Of a stretch of 64,000 nucleotides of DNA, positions 23,448 through 55,822 are shown one piece after another (within the stretch, counting starts at the first letter, position 1; each line of letters starts with the position of its first letter). This stretch comes from an uncultured bacterium (GTDB lineage: Bacteria; Bacillota; Clostridia; Oscillospirales; Acutalibacteraceae). The translations under genes and the position numbers were made by a program. The notes under the pieces are model-generated. The model did not search any database. It was not told the origin of the DNA and saw only the letters and a list, made by a program, of their open reading frames with translations. Location of the stretch: the NCBI GenBank assembly GCA_949283655.1, contig CASDTH010000003.1, forward strand, positions 62,001-126,000. The letters are read 5' to 3'.

Positions 23448-23727
23448 TAAAAACGCCCTCTGCAACCATTCAGATTACAGAGGGCGGGAAATCCGCGGTA
23501 CCACCTCTATTTACCGTTCCCTCGCGAAAACGGCCTCACCGGGTACATTTGCAAAGCAATCAATACCCTCGCGCTGTAACGGGCGCTGCCGGCGCGGCCT
23601 ACTGGGGAAAAACCCGTTCCGCCTTGCGGCTCAAAGAGGTATTTCACGGCGCGCCCACATCCCCTTCCACCACCCGGGGACTCTCTGTGCCGGACGGATG
23701 CCGCTACTTCTTCTTCTCACTGCCATT
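23448..23727 (-). promoter_or_regulatory. Tyrosine T-box riboswitch of tyrS
   Basis: The minus-strand leader contains the T-box sequence AGAGGTGGTACCGCGG (rc near 23491-23506), whose UGGN bulge pairs with uncharged tRNA-NCCA. The terminator stem is 23454-23462 with 23478-23486, followed by TTTTTA. A UAC codon at 23639-23641 in the Stem I region (GAAATACCTC) fits a Tyr specifier. The upstream GTCCCCGGGTGGTGG portion looks like Stem I. Uncharged tRNA-Tyr would favour the antiterminator. Confidence 0.93.
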
Positions 23728-23733
23728 GGTTGG

Positions 23734-35282: not shown

Positions 35283-35375
35283 TGGCGGAGAGCAAGGGAT
35301 TCGAACCCTCGAAACGGCGTTGACCGTTTACACGATTTCCAGTCGTGCTCCTTCGACCAGCTCGGACAACTCTCC
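35283..35375 (-). tRNA. tRNA-Ser (anticodon GGA)
   Basis: 93 nt including an encoded CCA. Acceptor stem GGAGAGT/GCTCTCC, anticodon loop CTGGAAA giving GGA (reads UCC/UCU), a long variable arm (AAACGGTCAACGCCGTTT) typical of class II tRNA, and T-arm GAGGG-TTCGAAT-CCCTT. A terminator follows directly. Confidence 0.96.
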
Positions 35376-46880: not shown

Positions 46881-47576
46881 TTACTCAAACTGCATCGCAT
46901 CGCGGTTTTCCCTGCGCCACCAGCTCTGCTTGGCAAAAGTGGACAGCTGCTCCGACAGGTGGGAACTGTCATTCTCCAGCAGAATGTGCGGATTCAGCTC
47001 CCGGTCAAATGCGATCACGCTGATCGCAGTGTTATCACACCATTCCACATCATTGAGCCGCTCAATCTCCCAGCCGTGCGCATGGCAAAGGAGATTACGG
47101 ATGGCGCAGCCGTGGGAGGCCACCAGCACGGACTGACCAAAATGACGGGAGGCAATCTCTGTGGCCACTGCCCAAACACGGTCATATACCTCCCGCATTG
47201 CCTCTCCGCCCTCCGGGTGGAAGCGCCAGGGCTCATTATTCCAAGCATAGCTATCTTCCGGGTAGAGAGAGGGAAAGTCCGCCCACTTTTTGCCCTCCCA
47301 ACAGCCGCCATGGATTTCCGCCAAGCGCTTATCTACCGCAATCGGAAGGCCATAATAACGGTCTGCCGCCTGCGCCGTTTTATAAGCGCGCAACAGCGGG
47401 CTGGAATAGGCTGCCTGAAAGGGGAACTCACGCATCCGATCAGCCAGCGCATCCAGCTGGCGTGCGCCGTTCTCCGTAATGTCGCAATCCGTGCTGCCCT
47501 GAAAAATGCGCAGATGGTTGCCCATTGCCTCACAGTGGCGCACAACAATCAGCCGGGCCTGCTCCTGCTCTACCAT
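46881..47576 (-). CDS. Histidine phosphatase family protein
   Basis: 231 residues. The catalytic motif is LIVVRHCEAMGN (Arg-His with Cys where Gly is usual), with the second His in VLVASHGCAIRNLL and AYSSPLLRAYKTAQ. It is a phosphoglycerate-mutase-like phosphatase of unknown substrate. It overlaps pyrD by 7 nt, so it is translated together with the pyrimidine genes; a nucleotide-related substrate is possible. Confidence 0.85.
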   Translation of the reverse strand: MVEQEQARLIVVRHCEAMGNHLRIFQGSTDCDITENGARQLDALADRMREFPFQAAYSSPLLRAYKTAQAADRYYGLPIAVDKRLAEIHGGCWEGKKWADFPSLYPEDSYAWNNEPWRFHPEGGEAMREVYDRVWAVATEIASRHFGQSVLVASHGCAIRNLLCHAHGWEIERLNDVEWCDNTAISVIAFDRELNPHILLENDSSHLSEQLSTFAKQSWWRRENRDAMQFE

Positions 47577-48487
47577 ATCTCAACCTTCCCCGTCAGCTCT
47601 GTAACCGATTGTATCTGATTTGCCTCTAGATAACACGCCAAGCCCTCAATGATCTTCAGCGGTGCAAAGGCATCCGCAAACATGGCGGTGCCAATCTGGA
47701 TGGCCGATGCACCCGCAAGCAGCACCTCCACCGCGTCTTCCCAGGTAGCGATGCCGCCCATCCCAATCACAGGGATATGCACGCGCCTGGCTGTTTCCCA
47801 CACCATACGCACCGCCACAGGGAACACTGCAGGGCCGGAGAGCCCACCCGTATTATTGCGCAGGATCGGCCGGCGGGAGTGGATATCGATCCGCATGCCC
47901 GTCAGGGTGTTGATCAGAGAAACCGCATCCGCGCCCGCAGCCTCTACGGCGGCGGCAATTTCGGAAATGCTGGTCACATTCGGCGTCAGCTTGACGATCA
48001 GCGGTTTACGCGTCGCCTTACGGACAGCTTCCGTGATCTCCTGCGCAGAGGCGCAGGAGGTGCCAAAGGAAGCGCCCCCCTGCCGGACATTCGGGCAGGA
48101 GATATTCAGCTCAATCATATCGACATCCGTCTCGTCCAGCCGGGCGGCCGCCTCGCAATAATCGGAAACCGCGCTGCCTGCCAGATTGGCGATCACCACT
48201 GTACCTTGCTCCTTAAGCCATGGCAGATCTTCCTGGATGAAGGTATCCACGCCCGGATTTTGCAGGCCGACGCTGTTGAGAATCCCGGAGGGGGTTTCCG
48301 CAATGCGCGGCGGCGGATTTCCCGGGCGCTCGTGCAGCGTTGTACCCTTGCAAGAAACTCCGCCCAAGCGGGAGATCGGATAAAGCGCGTTATACTCCCT
48401 GCCAAATCCAAAAGTGCCCGAAGCGGTAATGACCGGATTTTTTAGCTCCACACCGGCAATCTTCACGCGTAAATCTGCCATTACCAC
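47570..48487 (-). CDS. pyrD: Dihydroorotate dehydrogenase B, catalytic subunit
   Basis: 305 residues, FMN TIM barrel of the class 1B type. Seen: NPVITASGTFGFGREY, LNISCPNVRQGGASFG with the Cys region typical of 1B, PLIVKLTPNV and the phosphate-binding IGMGGIATWEDAVE. It oxidises dihydroorotate, passing electrons to PyrK. The start overlaps pyrK's stop by 7 nt. Confidence 0.95.
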   Translation of the reverse strand: MVMADLRVKIAGVELKNPVITASGTFGFGREYNALYPISRLGGVSCKGTTLHERPGNPPPRIAETPSGILNSVGLQNPGVDTFIQEDLPWLKEQGTVVIANLAGSAVSDYCEAAARLDETDVDMIELNISCPNVRQGGASFGTSCASAQEITEAVRKATRKPLIVKLTPNVTSISEIAAAVEAAGADAVSLINTLTGMRIDIHSRRPILRNNTGGLSGPAVFPVAVRMVWETARRVHIPVIGMGGIATWEDAVEVLLAGASAIQIGTAMFADAFAPLKIIEGLACYLEANQIQSVTELTGKVEIW

Positions 48488-49254
48488 ACAACCTCCCTCG
48501 CGTCAAACACCGGCCCATCCTTACACACATGGCGGTAGTGCTCGCCATCCGCCTCCCGTGTTTTACAGGCACAGACAAGGCATGCGCCAATACCACAGCC
48601 CATGCGCTCCTCCAGGGAAACCTGGCAGGAAATCCTATGCTCCAGCGCAATCGCTGAAACAGCCTTCAGCATTGGCGTAGGTCCGCACGCGAGGATGGCG
48701 TTGCACGGCTGCTCACTGTCCAACCGTTCTTTCAGCACATCCGTCACCAGCCCATGGTAGCCAAGGGAGCCGTCCTCTGTTGCAAGCTGCACGTTAGCGC
48801 AGGCAAGGGCAAAATCCTTTGCCAAAATGCTGGCCTGTGCATCTCGAAAGCCGAGAATTGCCTCCGCCCTGCCGGGCGCCGCCTGCGCGACCCCCAAAAG
48901 TGGCGGCGTACCGATTCCGCCGCCAATGAGGAGAATCCCTTCCCTCTCCTCCGGCAGGGAAAAGCCATTGCCCAGAGGACCTAGCACATCGAGCGTTTCA
49001 CCAGCCTTCTGGGCGGCAAGCCATGCCGTTCCCTCTCCGCGCACCTCAAAGACAAGGCGTAGCGCGCCGTTTGCCCGGTCGATTGCACAAATGGAGATTG
49101 GCCTGCGCAGCGGCTTTTCACCGCAGCGCAGGTGCACAAACTGGCCCGGCGCAGCCGCCTCGGCTATCTCGGGCAAGAAAAGCGTCATATCATATGCGGC
49201 CGGGCTCAGGCGCCGTATTGCGGCGACGCGCCCCTCCGCCTGCATATATGCCAT
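48481..49254 (-). CDS. pyrK: Dihydroorotate dehydrogenase electron-transfer subunit
   Basis: 257 residues: FAD domain (RPISICAID), NAD domain (ILLIGGGIGTPPLLGVA) and C-terminal [2Fe-2S] site with four Cys in MGCGIGACLVCACKT and RHVCKDGPVF. It moves electrons from PyrD to NAD. It sits 48 nt after carB. Confidence 0.94.
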   Translation of the reverse strand: MAYMQAEGRVAAIRRLSPAAYDMTLFLPEIAEAAAPGQFVHLRCGEKPLRRPISICAIDRANGALRLVFEVRGEGTAWLAAQKAGETLDVLGPLGNGFSLPEEREGILLIGGGIGTPPLLGVAQAAPGRAEAILGFRDAQASILAKDFALACANVQLATEDGSLGYHGLVTDVLKERLDSEQPCNAILACGPTPMLKAVSAIALEHRISCQVSLEERMGCGIGACLVCACKTREADGEHYRHVCKDGPVFDAREVVW

Positions 49255-49302: not shown

Positions 49303-52300
49303 TCAGGCAAGATCGATCAATTCAATATCCTCCAGCGTGCGCTTGTTCGCCAGGCAGCGCGTCAGCGCATAGGCAGTATCCAGCGAGGTGAAGGTAGGTA
49401 TCTGCCGTTCAAGCGCCCGGCGGCGAATGCGCACATCGTCCTGAATAGACCGGCGGCCCTTTTGCGAGGTGGAAACCACATAGACAATCTTATTGCTCTC
49501 CAGCAAATCCATCGTATTCGGCGAGCCCTCATGGATTTTGCGCACTACGCTGGCAGCTATAAAATTCTCGTTGAGCATCTTACAGGTTCCCGCAGTGGCA
49601 TAAAGGTCAAAGCCAAGCTGCGAAAAACGGTCGGCCAGCGCAATAGCCTCCTGCTTATCCGAATCCCGCACGGAAATAAACACGCCGCCCTTGCGCTTGA
49701 GACGCATGCCAGAAGCCGCCAGGCCCTTGAGCAGAGCATCCTCAAAGGTGTGCGCAATGCCAAAAGCTTCTCCCGTTGATTTCATTTCAAGGCCCAGCTG
49801 TGTATCCAGCCCTCCGATCTGGCCAAAACTGAACACTGGCACACGGACAGCACAATATTCTACCGGCTCTACAAGGCCAGTGCCATAGCCCATATCCCGC
49901 AGCTTTTCGCCCAGCATACAACGCATAGCCACCGCAGCGGCAGAAATACCGGTAGCCTTGGTCAGGAAAGGCACGCTATGGCTCTGTGTCACGCTGGCAT
50001 GGAACAAATACACCTGGTGATCATAAAACACAAACCGGACGTTCACCATACACGGTACGTGTAGCGCCAAAGCCAGCTTACCGGCATATTCCACTGCGCG
50101 CTGCTTCTCTTTGGCGGGGAGGGTCTGCGTTGGGCAAACAGAGATGGAATCTGCCGTGTGAATACCAGAACGCTCAATCTGCTCCGCGATACCTGGGATG
50201 AGATAATCCTCTCCGTCTGTGACCACATTGAGCTCCATGCCAACGCCGATATAATATTTTTGCAGCATGAGCGGAGCATTCTCCGTCAGCCCCTCCTGCT
50301 CCAGAAAGAGGGCAAGATCTGCGCCGGTGTAGGCGATCGAGCTGTGTTCCCCTGTGGTCAACCGCACAGGAAAGCCCAGCTCCCGCGCTGTTTGCTCTGC
50401 ATTCCCCGCCGCCGTAACACGGAAGGCCGGGTGCGGAATTTCCAACTCCTCGAGCAGGCGGGCAAACAGATGGCGGTCGCCAAGCTGCTGCGCCTGCTTC
50501 TCCCGCGCGCCAAGCACACGCACGCCGGCATCCTCCATCTGCTGCGACATGCGCACGGCACAGCGGCCGCCGAATTGCAGCACCGTACCCCAAGGCTGCT
50601 CCGTGGCCAAAATATTGGCGATATCTTCAGGTGTGACAGGGTCAAAATACAGCCGGTCAGCCACCTGAAAATCCGTAGACACCGCATCCGGATTATTATT
50701 GGCCATAATGGATTCATAGCCCTTTTCCCGCAGTGTACCAGCACAGTGGACAGCGCAATAATCCTGCTCAATCCCATAGCCGATGGTGACCGGCCCCGGC
50801 CCTAAAATAAGCACCTTTTTACGCCCATCCGGCCGCGCAATGCTCGTGAAAAGCGCCTCGTTATCATCATCCCACGCGGAATAGAAATAGGGATGCTGCG
50901 CATCAAACTCCGCCGCGCAGGTATCCACCATTTTGTAGGTGGAGTGAGAGACCTGCGCAAGCTTCCTGCCAGAGAGACGCTCAATTGTCTCGTCCAGAAA
51001 GCCCATCCCCTTAGCGCGCAGGAGCTTATCCTCATCCAGTCCGGCGGCCAGCTCCGCCTCCATATCTGCAATATTTTTTAGCTTGGCAAGAAACCATGGA
51101 TCGATCGCCGTCAGGCGGGATATCGTCTCGAATGCGATGCCGCGCTTAATGGCGGCGTATACTGCAAAAATTCGCTCATCGTTTGAGTGCTCCACCAGCT
51201 CCAGAATCTCCGCCTCAGAGAATGTGGAAAGCTTGGGCAGATTGGGGGTATCCAGCTGCATATTCAGGCTACGAACGGCCTTCATGAATGCCAGCTCAAA
51301 GCTTGTGCCAATGGCCATGATCTCGCCGGTCGCTTTCATGGAATCATCCAACCGCCGCTCTGCCTCATCGAAACGGTCAAAGGACCATTTCGGGATTTTT
51401 ACCACGCAATAGTCGATTGCCGGCTCACAGCAGGCTGTGGTGCAGCCGGTGATCGGATTGGGGATTTCATCAAGTGTATAGCCCATGGCGATCTTAGCCG
51501 CCACCTGGGCAACCGGATACCCGGTCGCCTTAGAGACCAGTGCCGACGTCCGGCTGATGCGGGGATCTGCCTCCAGCACAGCGTATTCCTTTCCATCCGG
51601 ACGAACGGCAAACCGCACGCTGCAATTGCCCTCAATGCCCAGGGAATCTACCAGCTGAATGGCACAGGCGCGCAGGGTTTCCGCTTCGCTGTCCGTCAAC
51701 GTCTGTGCGGGTGCGGCGACGATGCTGTCACCCGTGTGGATACCGGCCGGATCCAGATTTTCCATGCTGCAAACATTGATGCAGTTTCCGGCGCGGTCAC
51801 GCATGATTTCAAACTCAATTTCTTTCCAACCGGAGATACACTTTTCCACTAAAATTTGACGGATCAGAGACGTATGCAACTCTTTATCCGCCATTTCCAG
51901 CAATGTCTCCTCATCCGGGCAGGTATCAACCGTACTTCCTCCCAGCGTATAGGCCGGGCGGACGCGCACCGGATACCCCGCCTGCTTAGCAAACGCAGCG
52001 GCATCCTGCACTGTACCGACCACCTTGGCCGCCACACCGGGCAAGCCGGCACGCTCCAAGCTCTCAGCAAAGGATTGACGATCCTGCACGCTGTGAATAA
52101 CCGCTGGACTGACGCCGAGCAGACGCACCTGATGCTCCTCCAGAAATCCATTCATAGAAAGGCTGAGCCCCAGCTCCAAAGCTGGATCGCCGCCTACTGT
52201 AGGGAGAATACTATCCGGCCTTTCCTGCTCAATAATTCGCTTGACAATATCGATGTGGAGCGGCTCAATATAGATTCGATCAGCAAGGCCCTGATCCGTC

Positions 52301-52461
52301 ATCACCGCAGAAGGATTGGAGTTCAGTAGAACAGTCTCAATCCCCTCCTCTTTCAGCGTGCGCAGCGCCTGTGTGCCGGCATAATCAAACTCTGCCGAGC
52401 GGCCAATCACCGCAGGGCCGGAGCCGATCACCAAAACCTTCTTAATTTCTTCACGCTTCAT
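49303..52461 (-). CDS. carB: Carbamoyl-phosphate synthase large-chain homologue, degenerate active sites
   Basis: 1052 residues, full length and collinear with CarB: two ATP-grasp halves plus a C-terminal MGS domain. Start 52461 (GGGGGA upstream) overlaps carA by 11 nt. Key residues are altered: in the first half Gln-Arg (R283) and Asn-Asp (D299) at metal-ligand positions while Glu297 stays, and GGSGGG becomes GGSTVD. In the second half the glycine loop is gone (RLTTGEHSS), and the Gln/Glu/Asn ligands are Arg809, His821 and Ser823. GGQT motifs are GGDP and GGRC. The MGS domain keeps Lys, two Thr and Lys of the nucleotide site (SDKQE, YATAGT, VRKIHEG). Probably unable to make carbamoyl phosphate. 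Confidence 0.9.
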   Translation of the reverse strand: MKREEIKKVLVIGSGPAVIGRSAEFDYAGTQALRTLKEEGIETVLLNSNPSAVMTDQGLADRIYIEPLHIDIVKRIIEQERPDSILPTVGGDPALELGLSLSMNGFLEEHQVRLLGVSPAVIHSVQDRQSFAESLERAGLPGVAAKVVGTVQDAAAFAKQAGYPVRVRPAYTLGGSTVDTCPDEETLLEMADKELHTSLIRQILVEKCISGWKEIEFEIMRDRAGNCINVCSMENLDPAGIHTGDSIVAAPAQTLTDSEAETLRACAIQLVDSLGIEGNCSVRFAVRPDGKEYAVLEADPRISRTSALVSKATGYPVAQVAAKIAMGYTLDEIPNPITGCTTACCEPAIDYCVVKIPKWSFDRFDEAERRLDDSMKATGEIMAIGTSFELAFMKAVRSLNMQLDTPNLPKLSTFSEAEILELVEHSNDERIFAVYAAIKRGIAFETISRLTAIDPWFLAKLKNIADMEAELAAGLDEDKLLRAKGMGFLDETIERLSGRKLAQVSHSTYKMVDTCAAEFDAQHPYFYSAWDDDNEALFTSIARPDGRKKVLILGPGPVTIGYGIEQDYCAVHCAGTLREKGYESIMANNNPDAVSTDFQVADRLYFDPVTPEDIANILATEQPWGTVLQFGGRCAVRMSQQMEDAGVRVLGAREKQAQQLGDRHLFARLLEELEIPHPAFRVTAAGNAEQTARELGFPVRLTTGEHSSIAYTGADLALFLEQEGLTENAPLMLQKYYIGVGMELNVVTDGEDYLIPGIAEQIERSGIHTADSISVCPTQTLPAKEKQRAVEYAGKLALALHVPCMVNVRFVFYDHQVYLFHASVTQSHSVPFLTKATGISAAAVAMRCMLGEKLRDMGYGTGLVEPVEYCAVRVPVFSFGQIGGLDTQLGLEMKSTGEAFGIAHTFEDALLKGLAASGMRLKRKGGVFISVRDSDKQEAIALADRFSQLGFDLYATAGTCKMLNENFIAASVVRKIHEGSPNTMDLLESNKIVYVVSTSQKGRRSIQDDVRIRRRALERQIPTFTSLDTAYALTRCLANKRTLEDIELIDLA

Positions 52462-53551
52462 TGCGGCGTCCCCCATTCATCCGTTCGATAAAGGCATCAT
52501 AAATCCAAGCTGTATCCTGCCGCCCAATGCCGTCGGACGGTGTAAACTCCACGGAAAGCGCAGGAGATTCACAGTAGGCAAGCCCCTCTACCGCACCATC
52601 GTTTACATTCACCATCGTAATGGATGCGGCCTGCGTTGGGATGCTCTGCGCCGCAACGGAATAACCGTGGTTTTGATTGGTCACCATAATCCGGCCGGTT
52701 TTCAGCACACGGACCGGCTGGTTGGAGCCGCGATGCCCCTTGGGCATTTTGACAACGGCGCCTCCAGCGGCGAGCGCCATAATCTGATGCCCAAGCCCAA
52801 TGCCGAAAAGCGGTAACCTCGCCTGCAACAGCTCCCTTGCACAGTCAATCAGGCTGGGCGCATCGTCCGGATCGCCAGGCCCGTCTGAGAAAAGAACGCC
52901 ATCCGGCTTGCCGGCAAGAATCTCCTGCGCGTTTGTAAAGGCAGGCACCAGCGTTAAGTCACAGCCGCGGCGCGTCAGTGCATCCAATACATAGCGTGGG
53001 AAGCCGCAATCCAGCACGGTTACCCGGTAAAGCGGCTGCTCTGCTGGGATGTGCTCCTTCTCCCGGATGGTAACAGCCTCCACAGCGCCAGAGATCGTGT
53101 AGGCTCGAATTCGCTCAAGCAGGGCATCAAAATCCTCAAGGGAACCTGTAATCGCCCCGTTAAAATAGCCTTTATCCCGCAGTGCGCGCGTCAATCTACG
53201 GGTATCGATCCCACAGATCCCAACGATGCCACGCCTGCGCAGATATTCATCCAGCGTCATTCCGCCTTCCGAGAGGGCGCGTGTATCGCACCATTCCCGC
53301 ACAATATATCCATTGGCCATAATGCCGGAGGAGGCGCTTCCCTCCACGCCGCGGTTCCCGACCAGAGGATAGGTCTGCGCAACAATTTGCCCGTAGTAGG
53401 TTGGATCGCTAAGAAGGGATTGATAGGAGGCCATGCAGGTATTAAAAACAACCTCGCCGATTGTTTCCCCCTCCGCTCCCATAGAATAGCCTTGGAAAAC
53501 CGTCCCATCCGCGAGCACTAGATAGGCCCGCTTTGCCTCTTTGCCTGCCAT
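52451..53551 (-). CDS. carA: Carbamoyl-phosphate synthase small-chain homologue lacking the glutaminase triad
   Basis: 366 residues from the ATG at 53551 (GGGGGG 7 nt upstream). The N-terminal CarA domain and class I amidotransferase domain are both present (LFSDGPGDPDD, GHRGSNQPV, TNQNHGYSV). The nucleophile elbow normally GICLGHQ is GIGLGHQ (Gly252 for Cys); the normal HPE is TPS (Thr337, Ser339). I re-read all three codons in the DNA. The protein should bind CarB but not hydrolyse glutamine. It lies between pyrF and carB in the pyr operon. Confidence 0.92.
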   Translation of the reverse strand: MAGKEAKRAYLVLADGTVFQGYSMGAEGETIGEVVFNTCMASYQSLLSDPTYYGQIVAQTYPLVGNRGVEGSASSGIMANGYIVREWCDTRALSEGGMTLDEYLRRRGIVGICGIDTRRLTRALRDKGYFNGAITGSLEDFDALLERIRAYTISGAVEAVTIREKEHIPAEQPLYRVTVLDCGFPRYVLDALTRRGCDLTLVPAFTNAQEILAGKPDGVLFSDGPGDPDDAPSLIDCARELLQARLPLFGIGLGHQIMALAAGGAVVKMPKGHRGSNQPVRVLKTGRIMVTNQNHGYSVAAQSIPTQAASITMVNVNDGAVEGLAYCESPALSVEFTPSDGIGRQDTAWIYDAFIERMNGGRRNEA

Positions 53552-53568
53552 ATGCATGCCCCCCGTTT

Positions 53569-54501
53569 TTATTTGATCGAAATCGCAGGTATGCTGGCTG
53601 TGATTTCATCCCGCATACGGATTGCTTCACGCCGGGCGGCGCCCGCATAATCCCGCTCATCACAGGCCTCTTTCTGCCAAGCGCACATCAATGCGCGGGA
53701 GGAATTGATAATTGCCCCCAGCCCGTTTTGGTCAAAGGCGGGGCGCACGCTCTCCGCGCTCCCACCCTGCGCTCCGTAGCCGGGCACAAGGAAAAACGTA
53801 TGCGGCAATGCGGTGCGCAATTCCTCCAGCTGATCCGGGTAGGTCGCGCCAACCACTGCCCCTACGCCGGAATAGCCGTGATGCCCTGGCAGCTCGCGGC
53901 CCCACCGCTCGCAAAGATCCCCCATCATGCGGTAAAGCGGCCGGGCGCCTATCTGCTGATCCTGCACCTCTCCGGAAGAGGGGTTCGACGTTTTCACAAG
54001 CACGAAAATGCCCATATCCTCCTTGCGGCAAATATCCAAAAGCGGGAGAATCCCGTCGCTGCCCAGGTAACCGTTGACCGTCAGAGCGTCCGCTCCAAAG
54101 GGGGAAAACGTACTGCCGCCGACAGAGACCTTCCCAAGATGAGCAGCCGCATAGGCCTCCATAGTAGAGCCGATATCATTGCGCTTGCCATCCGTGATGA
54201 CAAACATCCCTTTTCCCTGCGCATAGCGGATGGTTTCGTACAAAACGCGTACGCCGGGCCAGCCATACATCTCATAATAAGCGCACTGTGGCTTGACAGC
54301 CGGAATAACATCACACAGTGCATCGATCAGGCCGCAATTAAACTGCAAAAGCGCCTGTGCCGCACCCTCCAGCGTTTCTCCAAAGTGAGCGAATGCTTCT
54401 TCTAAAATATAGGGAGGGATATAGCTGAGCTTTGGATCAAGGCCCGCAACCGTCGGGTTTTTCATAGCAGCAATTTTTTCGATTAAACGATCCAGCGACA
54501 T
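53569..54501 (-). CDS. pyrF: Orotidine-5'-phosphate decarboxylase (long type)
   Basis: 310 residues, the long PyrF class. The catalytic stretch is ITDGKRNDIGSTMEAYA (Asp-x-Lys-x-x-Asp present), with AGLDPKLSYIP at the N-terminus and FLVPGYGAQGGSAE for phosphate binding. It makes UMP from OMP. The ATG at 54501 has AAAGAGGTGG; the open frame upstream to 54645 is inside the spacer and pyrC. Confidence 0.94.
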   Translation of the reverse strand: MSLDRLIEKIAAMKNPTVAGLDPKLSYIPPYILEEAFAHFGETLEGAAQALLQFNCGLIDALCDVIPAVKPQCAYYEMYGWPGVRVLYETIRYAQGKGMFVITDGKRNDIGSTMEAYAAAHLGKVSVGGSTFSPFGADALTVNGYLGSDGILPLLDICRKEDMGIFVLVKTSNPSSGEVQDQQIGARPLYRMMGDLCERWGRELPGHHGYSGVGAVVGATYPDQLEELRTALPHTFFLVPGYGAQGGSAESVRPAFDQNGLGAIINSSRALMCAWQKEACDERDYAGAARREAIRMRDEITASIPAISIK

Positions 54502-54547
54502 AACGCAAACCACCTCTTTTTGAAAATCTCCCAAAGGGAATCCCACA

Positions 54548-55822
54548 TCATGCTCTTTGATAAACCAGCTCGCCCCGGCAGAAGGTGTATTGCACACGCC
54601 CTTGCAGCCGTAGGCCCTTAAATGCGCTGTTGCGGGATTTCCCATGGAACCGGGCGGGCTCTACCACCCAGCTTTCCTGCGGGTCAAACAGCATTATGTC
54701 CGCAATCCCGCCCTCACGCAGAGTGCCGCATGGGGCTTTGAGAATTCGCGCCGGCACGGACGACATCCGATACAACAACTCCGGCAGGCTCATAACCCCC
54801 TGCCCTACCAGGCAGGTGATTCCGGCTCCAAGCGAAGTCTCCAGGCCGATTACGCCGTTAGGCGCTTTGACAAAATCTGCTTTTTCCTCCGCCGTATGCG
54901 GCGCGTGATCGGTGGCGATCGCATCGATCGTCCCATCTTGCAGACCCTCTAAAATGGCCAAACGATCCCGCTCCGGGCGCAGGGGCGGGCTCATGCGGTA
55001 ATCCGCATCGCAGGCAAGCAGCTTTTCATCCGTCATCATAAAATAATGCGGGCAGGTTTCCGCCGTGACTTTAGCCCCCATCTTCTTGGCTGCGCGAATC
55101 ATCTGCACACTCACCGCTGTACTTACATGGCAGATGTGGACGGGAGCTCCAGTTGATAGAGAGAGCGAAAGCTCACGCGCCGTGCCCACATCCTCGGCGG
55201 CGGCTGGGACGCCCGGCACGCCGAGCGCTTGCGACACCGCACCCTCATGGATCAGGCCGTTGCGCGTGAGCGTTTTATCCTCACAATGCGCCAGCACCGG
55301 CACACCCATGCTGGCGGCCCGCCGCATGGCTTCTGCCATAAAATAGGCCGTGGATACCGGACATCCGTCATCCGAAAAAGCAACGGCGCCAGCCCTTTTC
55401 AACGCCTCAAAATCCGTCAGTTCCTTCCCGGTAAGGCCCTTTGTAATCGCCGCCACCGGCAGCACACGCGCCTTTGCATGGGAAGCTTTCTCCAAAATAT
55501 AGCGAATGGTCTCCGGTGAATCGGCTGCCGGAGCAGTATTTGGCATCGCCGCAACGCTGGTTACCCCTCCAGCGGCGGCAGCCTCACAGCCGCTTTCAAT
55601 ATCCTCCTTATGTGTTAGGCCAGGATCCCGGAGATGCACATGCATATCCACAAGGCCTGGGGCGAGGCAGAGACCGTCCGCATCCAACGTGCGGCAGCCC
55701 CGCCTGGAGAGAAACGGCCCGATTTGAGCAATGCAGCCGTTTTCCAACAGGATATCGCCGGTATAATCCACGCCTGCGGAGAGATCCAGCATATGCGCAT
55801 GACGAATCAGCCATTCAGACAT
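54548..55822 (-). CDS. pyrC: Dihydroorotase
   Basis: 424 residues, type I amidohydrolase. Zinc ligands lie in DMHVHLRDPGLTHKED, AHCED and CHVSTA; SDDGCPV and ATDHAPHT carry the catalytic acids. It closes carbamoyl-aspartate to dihydroorotate. First pyr gene here, 67 nt after the PBP gene; pyrB and pyrE are not in the window and no PyrR attenuator was seen. AGGAGG precedes the ATG. Confidence 0.94.
   Translation of the reverse strand: MSEWLIRHAHMLDLSAGVDYTGDILLENGCIAQIGPFLSRRGCRTLDADGLCLAPGLVDMHVHLRDPGLTHKEDIESGCEAAAAGGVTSVAAMPNTAPAADSPETIRYILEKASHAKARVLPVAAITKGLTGKELTDFEALKRAGAVAFSDDGCPVSTAYFMAEAMRRAASMGVPVLAHCEDKTLTRNGLIHEGAVSQALGVPGVPAAAEDVGTARELSLSLSTGAPVHICHVSTAVSVQMIRAAKKMGAKVTAETCPHYFMMTDEKLLACDADYRMSPPLRPERDRLAILEGLQDGTIDAIATDHAPHTAEEKADFVKAPNGVIGLETSLGAGITCLVGQGVMSLPELLYRMSSVPARILKAPCGTLREGGIADIMLFDPQESWVVEPARFHGKSRNSAFKGLRLQGRVQYTFCRGELVYQRA

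What the first reader, a model, noticed from the sequence alone, without database searches (positions are those of the whole stretch)
49303..52461. CarB with a dead second ATP-grasp site but a preserved allosteric domain
Ungapped alignment by eye to remembered E. coli CarB puts Arg, His and Ser at the second-half metal ligands (Gln, Glu, Asn), removes the glycine loop and changes both GGQT motifs. The first half also loses Gln and the GGG loop. The MGS domain keeps Lys, Thr, Thr, Lys and one Thr of the nucleotide-contact set. A 1052-residue open frame with this selective loss suggests retention for binding UMP, IMP or PRPP and not for catalysis.
Basis: partly seen in the sequence, partly recalled or inferred. 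Interest (0 to 1): 0.85.

Follow-up and report, generated by a model that had tools for sequence, protein, structure and literature searches.

The report
Dead carbamoyl-phosphate synthetase kept as sensor
Some gut bacteria carry, in their pyrimidine operon, a second copy of the enzyme that makes carbamoyl phosphate; this copy lacks catalytic residues at all three active sites but is kept by selection with its regulatory domain unusually well conserved, so it is likely a sensor that would control the working copy.

Summary
The gene is on the minus strand (49303-52461), in a pyrC-pyrF-carA*-carB*-pyrK-pyrD operon. Against E. coli, CarB* has Arg/His/Ser at the site-2 metal ligands, lost the site-1 Gln and Asn, and has both GGQT motifs and both glycine loops changed. 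Its partner CarA* (52451-53557) is dead too: Cys269Gly, His353Thr, Glu355Ser. The genome holds one further CarA-CarB with every catalytic residue. Of 398 family genomes, 17 carry the CarA* clade, all with Gly269; 10 of the 17 also have a dead CarB* (one read in part). Each genus lost different residues; four lack about 50 residues of ATP-grasp 2. Yet frames stay open, dN/dS is 0.05-0.07, and the regulatory (MGS) domain, least conserved in active enzymes, here exceeds ATP-grasp 2 in 28 of 36 pairs (active controls: 0 of 307). Nucleotide-site residues Lys954, Thr974, Thr977 and Lys993 are kept in 8 of 9 full genome copies and 23 of 23 dead protein clusters; the glutamine pocket is kept without its triad. 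I read it as a pseudoenzyme pair, likely a nucleotide-sensing partner of the active synthetase. Binding and partner are untested.

The parts
49303..52461 (-). carB*: CarB paralogue of 1052 aa with both ATP-grasp sites lacking metal ligands
   Evidence: ORF; Pfam/NCBIfam CarB domains; residue table
52451..53557 (-). carA*: CarA paralogue of 368 aa lacking the Cys-His-Glu triad (C269G, H353T, E355S), glutamine pocket residues kept
   Evidence: ORF; NCBIfam; residue table
51925..51933 (-). codons for E. coli Gly178-180 (first glycine loop), here Thr-Val-Asp
51565..51615 (-). site-1 metal-ligand stretch: Gln285 to Arg, Glu299 kept, Asn301 to Asp
49993..50037 (-). site-2 metal-ligand stretch: Gln829 to Arg, Glu841 to His, Asn843 to Ser
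49303..49707 (-). MGS (regulatory) domain of carB*, from the codon aligned to E. coli 937; Lys954, Thr974, Thr977, Lys993 kept
52796..52798 (-). codon of the lost CarA nucleophile (E. coli Cys269), here Gly
54548..55822 (-). pyrC (dihydroorotase), operon context
53569..54645 (-). pyrF (orotidine-5'-phosphate decarboxylase), operon context
48481..49254 (-). pyrK (dihydroorotate dehydrogenase electron transfer subunit; best NCBIfam models match below their cut-offs), operon context
47570..48487 (-). pyrD (dihydroorotate dehydrogenase), operon context

Best explanation
A paralogous carbamoyl-phosphate synthetase in the pyrimidine operon lacks catalytic residues at all three active centres (the CarA glutaminase and both CarB ATP-grasp sites), is nevertheless held by purifying selection, and likely works as a nucleotide-sensing regulatory partner of the cell's other, catalytically complete CarA-CarB. 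Proposed working: CarA*-CarB* would fold and pair like a normal CarAB heterodimer; its MGS domain would bind UMP (or IMP or PRPP); and, since in E. coli dimers form through the regulatory domains and tetramers through the oligomerization domains (PMC6245113, passages seen), it would form mixed oligomers with the active CarA-CarB and set carbamoyl-phosphate output by the pyrimidine pool. CarA*, which keeps the glutamine pocket without the triad, may add glutamine sensing without hydrolysis. Shown: residue losses, the complete second copy, operon context, purifying selection, the shift of constraint towards MGS. Inferred: absence of activity (from the established roles of these residues), ligand binding, mixed oligomers, direction of control.
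For: Catalytic residues lost in CarA* and at both CarB* sites, with about 50 residues of ATP-grasp 2 missing in G166, G293, G349 and G125. A second copy with all CarB ligands in 17 of 17 CarA* genomes and a full CarA triad in 15 of 17. Window/G001 dN/dS: carB* 0.053, carA* 0.076, against pyrC 0.077, pyrK 0.109, pyrF 0.117, ruvX 0.134; MGS domain lowest at 0.027. MGS identity exceeds ATP-grasp 2 in 28 of 36 dead pairs, 0 of 28 second-copy pairs and 0 of 307 divergence-matched active pairs. K954, T974, T977, K993, D1025 in 23 of 23 dead clusters. In 119 of 119 CarA* clusters with a residue there, position 269 is Gly while Gln273 and Asn311 are kept, and position 353 takes 11 different residues. 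Canonical invariant positions of the oligomerization domain retained at 0.89 on average, n=19. PyrI nucleotide domain absent in 9 of 10 dead-CarB* genomes.
Against: No binding, oligomer or activity data. The MGS domain is the single most conserved domain in only 16 of 36 dead pairs; all 8 pairs where it does not exceed ATP-grasp 2 involve G293 or G349. G349 lost Lys993 and Asp1025. The intact outlier P0133 also seems to show MGS above ATP-grasp 2. In G003/G160 carB* (dN/dS 0.070) is less constrained than pyrD (0.034) and pyrK (0.026). The MGS residues are also common in intact CarB (81 of 96). Absence of PyrI is not specific: 5 of 7 sister genomes with intact CarB lack it too. Gly at 269 is also the commonest replacement in unrelated dead CarA copies (8 of 15), so it may reflect relief of strain.
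Confidence: 0.4

Rival explanations
1. Non-catalytic scaffold: the dead pair holds pyrimidine enzymes together (for instance PyrB or PyrC, as the CAD protein does in animals) or takes part in handing carbamoyl phosphate to PyrB; ligand sensing is secondary.
For: The pair stays between pyrF and pyrK in most CarA* genomes and the oligomerization-domain invariants are kept (0.89, n=19).
Against: In G349 the pair persists alone after its pyr neighbours are gone; conservation rises in the MGS domain with its nucleotide-site residues, not evenly.
Confidence: 0.2
2. Regulator with another target: the MGS domain senses a nucleotide, but the pair acts on PyrB, a transporter or gene expression and not on the active CarA-CarB.
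For: Same sequence evidence for a kept sensor domain; PyrB here has only the PyrI_C zinc-domain match and no PyrI nucleotide domain, so it could need an outside sensor.
Against: The simplest partner of a CarB oligomerization and MGS surface is another CarB; no other candidate partner was seen.
Confidence: 0.2
3. New chemistry: one altered ATP-grasp site (site 1, which keeps E299, R303, H243, R129, R169, E215 in the window) still binds ATP or metal and catalyses another reaction.
For: Site 1 is the less degraded site in the window, and ATP-grasp 1 is on average the best conserved domain in the full dead set (0.56 against MGS 0.54).
Against: The site-1 ligands differ between genera (RED, QGS, KGD, RGY, REE, RGD, HNE), so no common new site is visible; even within the window's close group P0132 has R-A-P.
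Confidence: 0.08
4. Decaying pseudogenes on the way to loss.
For: Long branches of dead members and deletions in four of them.
Against: dN/dS 0.05-0.08 over both genes in two species pairs; long open frames in 9 of 9 fully read genome copies; 23 dead clusters.
Confidence: 0.04
5. Still a working, ammonia-fed carbamoyl-phosphate synthetase with neighbouring residues replacing the ligands.
For: Sister genomes with dead CarA but intact CarB (G035, G179, G076, G271, G194, G297) would be just that.
Against: Arg and His at ligand positions, lost glycine loops, and deletion of part of ATP-grasp 2 in four relatives.
Confidence: 0.03

Closest known systems
Escherichia coli carbamoyl-phosphate synthetase CarA-CarB (1a9x, 1c30, 1ce8)
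   Different: Catalytic residues at all three centres lost; sits in a pyr operon beside a complete second copy
Separate pyrimidine- and arginine-linked carbamoyl-phosphate synthetases of Gram-positive bacteria (recalled, from no call)
   Same: Two CarAB copies, one of them in the pyr operon
   Different: In those bacteria both copies are recalled to be active; here the pyr-operon copy lacks catalytic residues
Human CPS1 (5dot, 5dou; PMC4655335, passages seen)
   Same: Amidotransferase-like part inactive through loss of the catalytic Cys
   Different: CPS1 keeps both phosphorylation domains and makes carbamoyl phosphate from ammonia; CarB* has lost both sites
Trypanosome prozyme, dead paralogue of AdoMetDC (PMC5201418, abstract and outline seen)
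   Same: A catalytically dead paralogue encoded beside its active counterpart in one genome; proposed control through mixed oligomers
   Different: Eukaryotic single-subunit enzyme of another pathway; activation was measured there, not here
Trypanosomatid deoxyhypusine synthase dead paralogue (PMC3663545, start of abstract seen in listings)
   Same: Dead and active paralogues form one complex
   Different: Unrelated enzyme; tested experimentally

Membership tests
Glutamine-hydrolysing carbamoyl-phosphate synthase, by sequence | NCBIfam equivalog models for large and small subunit above curated cut-off | tested here: met
   TIGR01369 1134.8 bits (cut-off 1027) and TIGR01368 349.2 bits (cut-off 307.35)
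Glutamine-hydrolysing carbamoyl-phosphate synthase, as an enzyme | Glutaminase triad Cys269-His353-Glu355 in CarA | tested here: not met
   G, T, S in the window; no Cys, His or Glu at these places in 17 of 17 clade genomes
Glutamine-hydrolysing carbamoyl-phosphate synthase, as an enzyme | Metal ligands Gln-Glu-Asn at both ATP-grasp sites | tested here: not met
   R-E-D and R-H-S in the window
Ammonia-dependent carbamoyl-phosphate synthetase (CPS1 type) | Dead glutaminase with two complete ATP-grasp sites | tested here: not met
   Both ATP-grasp sites lack ligands here; met by sequence in G035, G179, G076, G271, G194, G297
Pseudoenzyme | Fold of an enzyme family with catalytic motifs lost | tested here: met
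   Models of mean pLDDT 84.7 and 85.5 matching CarB and CarA; motifs lost
Pseudoenzyme | Kept under purifying selection | tested here: met
   dN/dS 0.053 and 0.076 (window/G001), 0.070 and 0.071 (G003/G160) for carB* and carA*; dS is high
Regulatory dead paralogue (prozyme-like) | Active paralogue in the same genome | tested here: met
   Second CarB with all ligands in 17 of 17 genomes; second CarA triad complete in 15 of 17; activity itself not tested
Regulatory dead paralogue (prozyme-like) | Physical complex with, and change in activity of, the active paralogue | not testable with these tools
   Needs purified proteins
UMP/IMP-binding MGS domain | Contact residues K954, T974, T977, K993 | tested here: met
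   Kept in the window and in 8 of 9 full dead genome copies and 23 of 23 dead clusters; T977 and K993 roles from PMC6245113, the others recalled
UMP/IMP-binding MGS domain | Measured nucleotide binding | not testable with these tools
   Needs an assay

The most novel reading that the evidence does not exclude
A whole metabolic enzyme complex, both subunits and three active centres, was stripped of catalysis stepwise (glutaminase first, then both ATP sites) and turned into a two-input sensor that reads a pyrimidine nucleotide at its MGS domain and glutamine at its emptied amidotransferase pocket and sets the activity of the one working carbamoyl-phosphate synthetase through mixed oligomers, taking the role that PyrI plays elsewhere.
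Probability: 0.22. Interest if true: 0.85.

Novelty: new variant of a known kind. Interest (0 to 1): 0.68.

Why it matters
Carbamoyl-phosphate synthetase is a textbook enzyme for allostery and channelling, and my searches of the held paper library listed no report of a natural form dead at all three centres. The clade offers a natural series: relatives with a dead glutaminase only, relatives with every centre dead, and one genome that has PyrI and has lost Lys993 in the dead copy. That makes it testable whether an allosteric domain can outlive its own enzyme and regulate a paralogue. Practically, standard models still score both genes above their enzyme cut-offs, so automatic pathway reconstructions would count a synthetase that likely does not work.

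Tried and rejected
Considered and rejected: alignment slip (the genome's second copy and 96 intact clusters align with all ligands in the same alignments); sequencing error (same losses in congener G001/L032 and in the close clusters); pseudogene. An Rfam search of the window at gathering thresholds gave a T-box and a tRNA and no leader at the operon. Ornithine-site residues recalled from memory were tabulated; they are mostly alike in dead and active copies and decide nothing. Tunnel positions, partly recalled, are altered in dead members but were not used as main evidence. The CarB and CarA trees are the quick kind with SH-aLRT only, and dead members have long branches, so a single origin of CarB death is likely, not proven.

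Results against the reading. My first count of domain identity left out G349 and held a near-copy pair (P0142 with G007): MGS above ATP-grasp 2 in 31 of 36 pairs. Recounted with G349 in and the near-copy out it is 28 of 36, MGS is the highest of the six domains in 16 of 36, and ATP-grasp 1 is on average slightly higher (0.56 against 0.54); all 8 exceptions involve G293 or G349. A further count of 178 of 178 pairs among dead clusters under 80% identity rests on clusters found with the window as query and is biased to its close kin. A control of intact clusters at 40-60% identity went the other way (79 of 94 pairs); I infer from mean identities that these are mostly pairs with one outlier, P0133. 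G303's active copy has Arg at 993 although that genome lacks PyrI, so change at 993 in active copies does not follow PyrI alone.

Literature: searches listed no paper; nothing on a dead bacterial synthetase; papers outside the held library were not searched. Limits: dN/dS is Nei-Gojobori with dS from 0.5 to 2.8 (infinite for ruvX of G003/G160). Roles of CarA 47, 241, 243, 273, 311, 313, 314 and of the CarB ligand positions are recalled from the E. coli structures; T977, K993, S948, T1042 are from PMC6245113. Genus and family labels are the tool's numbers.
Full report
What is there. The frame named in the finding lies on the minus strand, 52461 to 49303. Pfam and NCBIfam place it as CarB with pre-ATP-grasp, ATP-grasp, oligomerization and MGS domains, and the overlapping gene 52451-53557 as CarA. 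Upstream are pyrF and pyrC, downstream pyrK and pyrD, all on the minus strand. The genome is a 2.59-Mb assembly in 50 contigs. A near relative (L032, 87% identical CarB, MAG UBA1691) and a UniRef name on a relative (P0125) point to Candidatus Fimivicinus, which a paper gives as the name of GTDB genus UBA1691, Oscillospirales, Acutalibacteraceae (one passage seen).

Catalysis. Aligned with E. coli CarB, site 2 has Q829R, E841H, N843S, R845T, R848H, D753Q, E761G; site 1 has Q285R and N301D with E299 kept; the GGG loop is TVD; GGQT is GGDP and GGRC. CarA has C269G, H353T, E355S. The genome search found one further CarB and one further CarA, with complete ligands and triad.

Distribution. A search of 398 genomes of the family with CarA* found 298 with some match; 17 stand apart (417 bits or more, next 343). 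All 17 have Gly at 269, and none has His at 353 or Glu at 355. In seven of them CarB keeps its ligands (six read in full; G227's contig ends after site 1). In ten CarB is dead (nine read in full; G303's contig ends after a dead site 1). Ligand triplets at sites 1 / 2 are RED/RHS (window, G001), RED/RRS (G003, G160), QGS/EHQ (G007), RGY/QER (G166), REE/QSS (G293), RGD/QKS (G349), HNE/EGS (G125), KGD/unread (G303). G166, G293, G349 and G125 lack about 50 residues around the second glycine loop. Among the 120 CarB clusters listed (of 3964 matches; scored on residues 560-1052), 23 are dead at both sites, 96 intact, one lacks a site-1 ligand only. Each of the 17 genomes has two CarB genes; the second has all ligands in 17 of 17, and the second CarA triad is complete in 15 of 17 (dead in G007, His353Tyr in G166).

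History. CarA* rows form one clade (27 of 27 rows, SH-aLRT 100) and dead CarB* rows another (21 of 21, SH-aLRT 100), next to intact P0136 and P0155 (support 80). P0022, a dead CarA* whose cluster shares the longest-contig length of P0136, falls inside the CarA* subgroup of dead-CarB* genomes.

Selection. Between the window and G001, dN/dS is 0.053 for carB* and 0.076 for carA*, against pyrC 0.077, pyrK 0.109, pyrF 0.117, ruvX 0.134; within carB* the MGS domain is lowest, 0.027. The second-copy carB gives 0.036. In G003/G160 carB* is 0.070 (MGS 0.035), with pyrD 0.034 and pyrK 0.026, so there it is less constrained than its neighbours. Domain identities for nine dead CarB* without near-copies (36 pairs) are 0.49 (pre-ATP-grasp 1), 0.56 (ATP-grasp 1), 0.46 (oligomerization), 0.42 (pre-ATP-grasp 2), 0.46 (ATP-grasp 2) and 0.54 (MGS); MGS exceeds ATP-grasp 2 in 28 of 36, and the eight exceptions all involve G293 or G349. 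In second copies (28 pairs) ATP-grasp 2 is 0.74 and MGS 0.53; in 307 pairs of active loci with total identity 0.45-0.60, ATP-grasp 2 is 0.61 and MGS 0.35; MGS exceeds ATP-grasp 2 in none of either set. Pairs share branches and are not independent. Positions invariant in 21 active and sister CarB rows are retained in nine dead copies at 0.51 in ATP-grasp 2 (n=62), 0.72 in ATP-grasp 1 (n=91), 0.89 in the oligomerization domain (n=19) and 0.94 in MGS (n=7).

Ligand sites. K954, T974, T977 and K993 are kept in 8 of 9 full dead genome copies; G349 lacks K993. With D1025 they are kept in 23 of 23 dead clusters and 81 of 96 intact ones; D1025 is Glu in G125 and Asn in G349. A review names Thr977 and Lys993 as crucial for UMP inhibition and binding, ties Ser948 to UMP and IMP response, and says that dimers form through regulatory domains and tetramers through oligomerization domains (PMC6245113, passages). 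In CarA*, position 269 is Gly in 119 of 119 clusters with a residue there, while 353 takes 11 different residues; Q273 and N311 are kept in 119 of 119 and Thr or Ser at 47 in 120 of 120 (these are the best 120 of 7998 matches). A fixed glycine beside a freely varying triad partner is not what simple drift gives, but relief of strain is an alternative: of 15 other copies with lost Cys269, 8 have Gly, 4 Arg, 2 Asp and 1 Ser.

Pathway context. PyrB of the window genome is one 382-aa frame whose end carries a PyrI_C zinc-domain match. The PyrI nucleotide domain is absent from 9 of 10 genomes with dead CarB* and from 5 of 7 with intact CarB. The exception, G349, has a separate operon of pyrC, pyrK, pyrD, an OMP decarboxylase, a phosphoribosyltransferase, pyrB and pyrI, without carAB, while its dead pair lies between the penicillin-binding-protein gene and ruvX with no pyrC, pyrF, pyrK or pyrD match beside it. 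There K993 and D1025 are lost in the dead copy and K993 is Ser in the active copy. That is one event, and it is what a sensor model would predict once PyrI takes over; against it, G303's active copy has Arg at 993 without PyrI.

Verdict. Residue losses, the complete second copy, purifying selection and the shift of constraint towards MGS are shown. That the pair is inactive follows from the established roles of these residues. That it senses UMP-type nucleotides and perhaps glutamine, and acts on the active synthetase, is inference, at about 0.40. Known kind: regulatory pseudoenzyme paralogues such as prozyme (PMC5201418, abstract). New, as far as my searches go: a form of carbamoyl-phosphate synthetase dead in both subunits, kept in a pyrimidine operon.

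Noticed in passing
L123:8612-12700 (G035); second CarB frames of G002, G179, G076, G271, G227, G297: Single open frames of about 1340-1370 aa: in L123 Pfam finds CarB followed by diaminopimelate epimerase (DapF); frames of like length in the others were not domain-checked. In the window genome dapF lies near the second carAB as a separate gene.
   Followed up: partly
L092, L081, L106, L029, L102, L104, L011, L015, L018, L024, L111, L059, L063; second copy of G007; G018: CarA copies outside the CarA* clade that lost Cys269, beside CarB with intact ligands in the rows tabulated: loss of glutaminase seems to have happened repeatedly in these Clostridia.
   Followed up: partly
L160 and L238 (G349): The dead pair stands without pyr neighbours while a separate pyr operon with pyrI and without carAB lies elsewhere.
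   Followed up: partly
L236:7937-9085 (-), window genome C13: PyrB frame of 382 aa whose end matches the PyrI_C zinc domain, with no PyrI nucleotide domain found in the genome.
   Followed up: partly
L239 (G222): A pyr operon with carB directly after pyrC and no CarA match between them.
   Followed up: no
window 23477-23729 (-) and 35286-35375 (-): T-box leader and tRNA found by Rfam.
   Followed up: no
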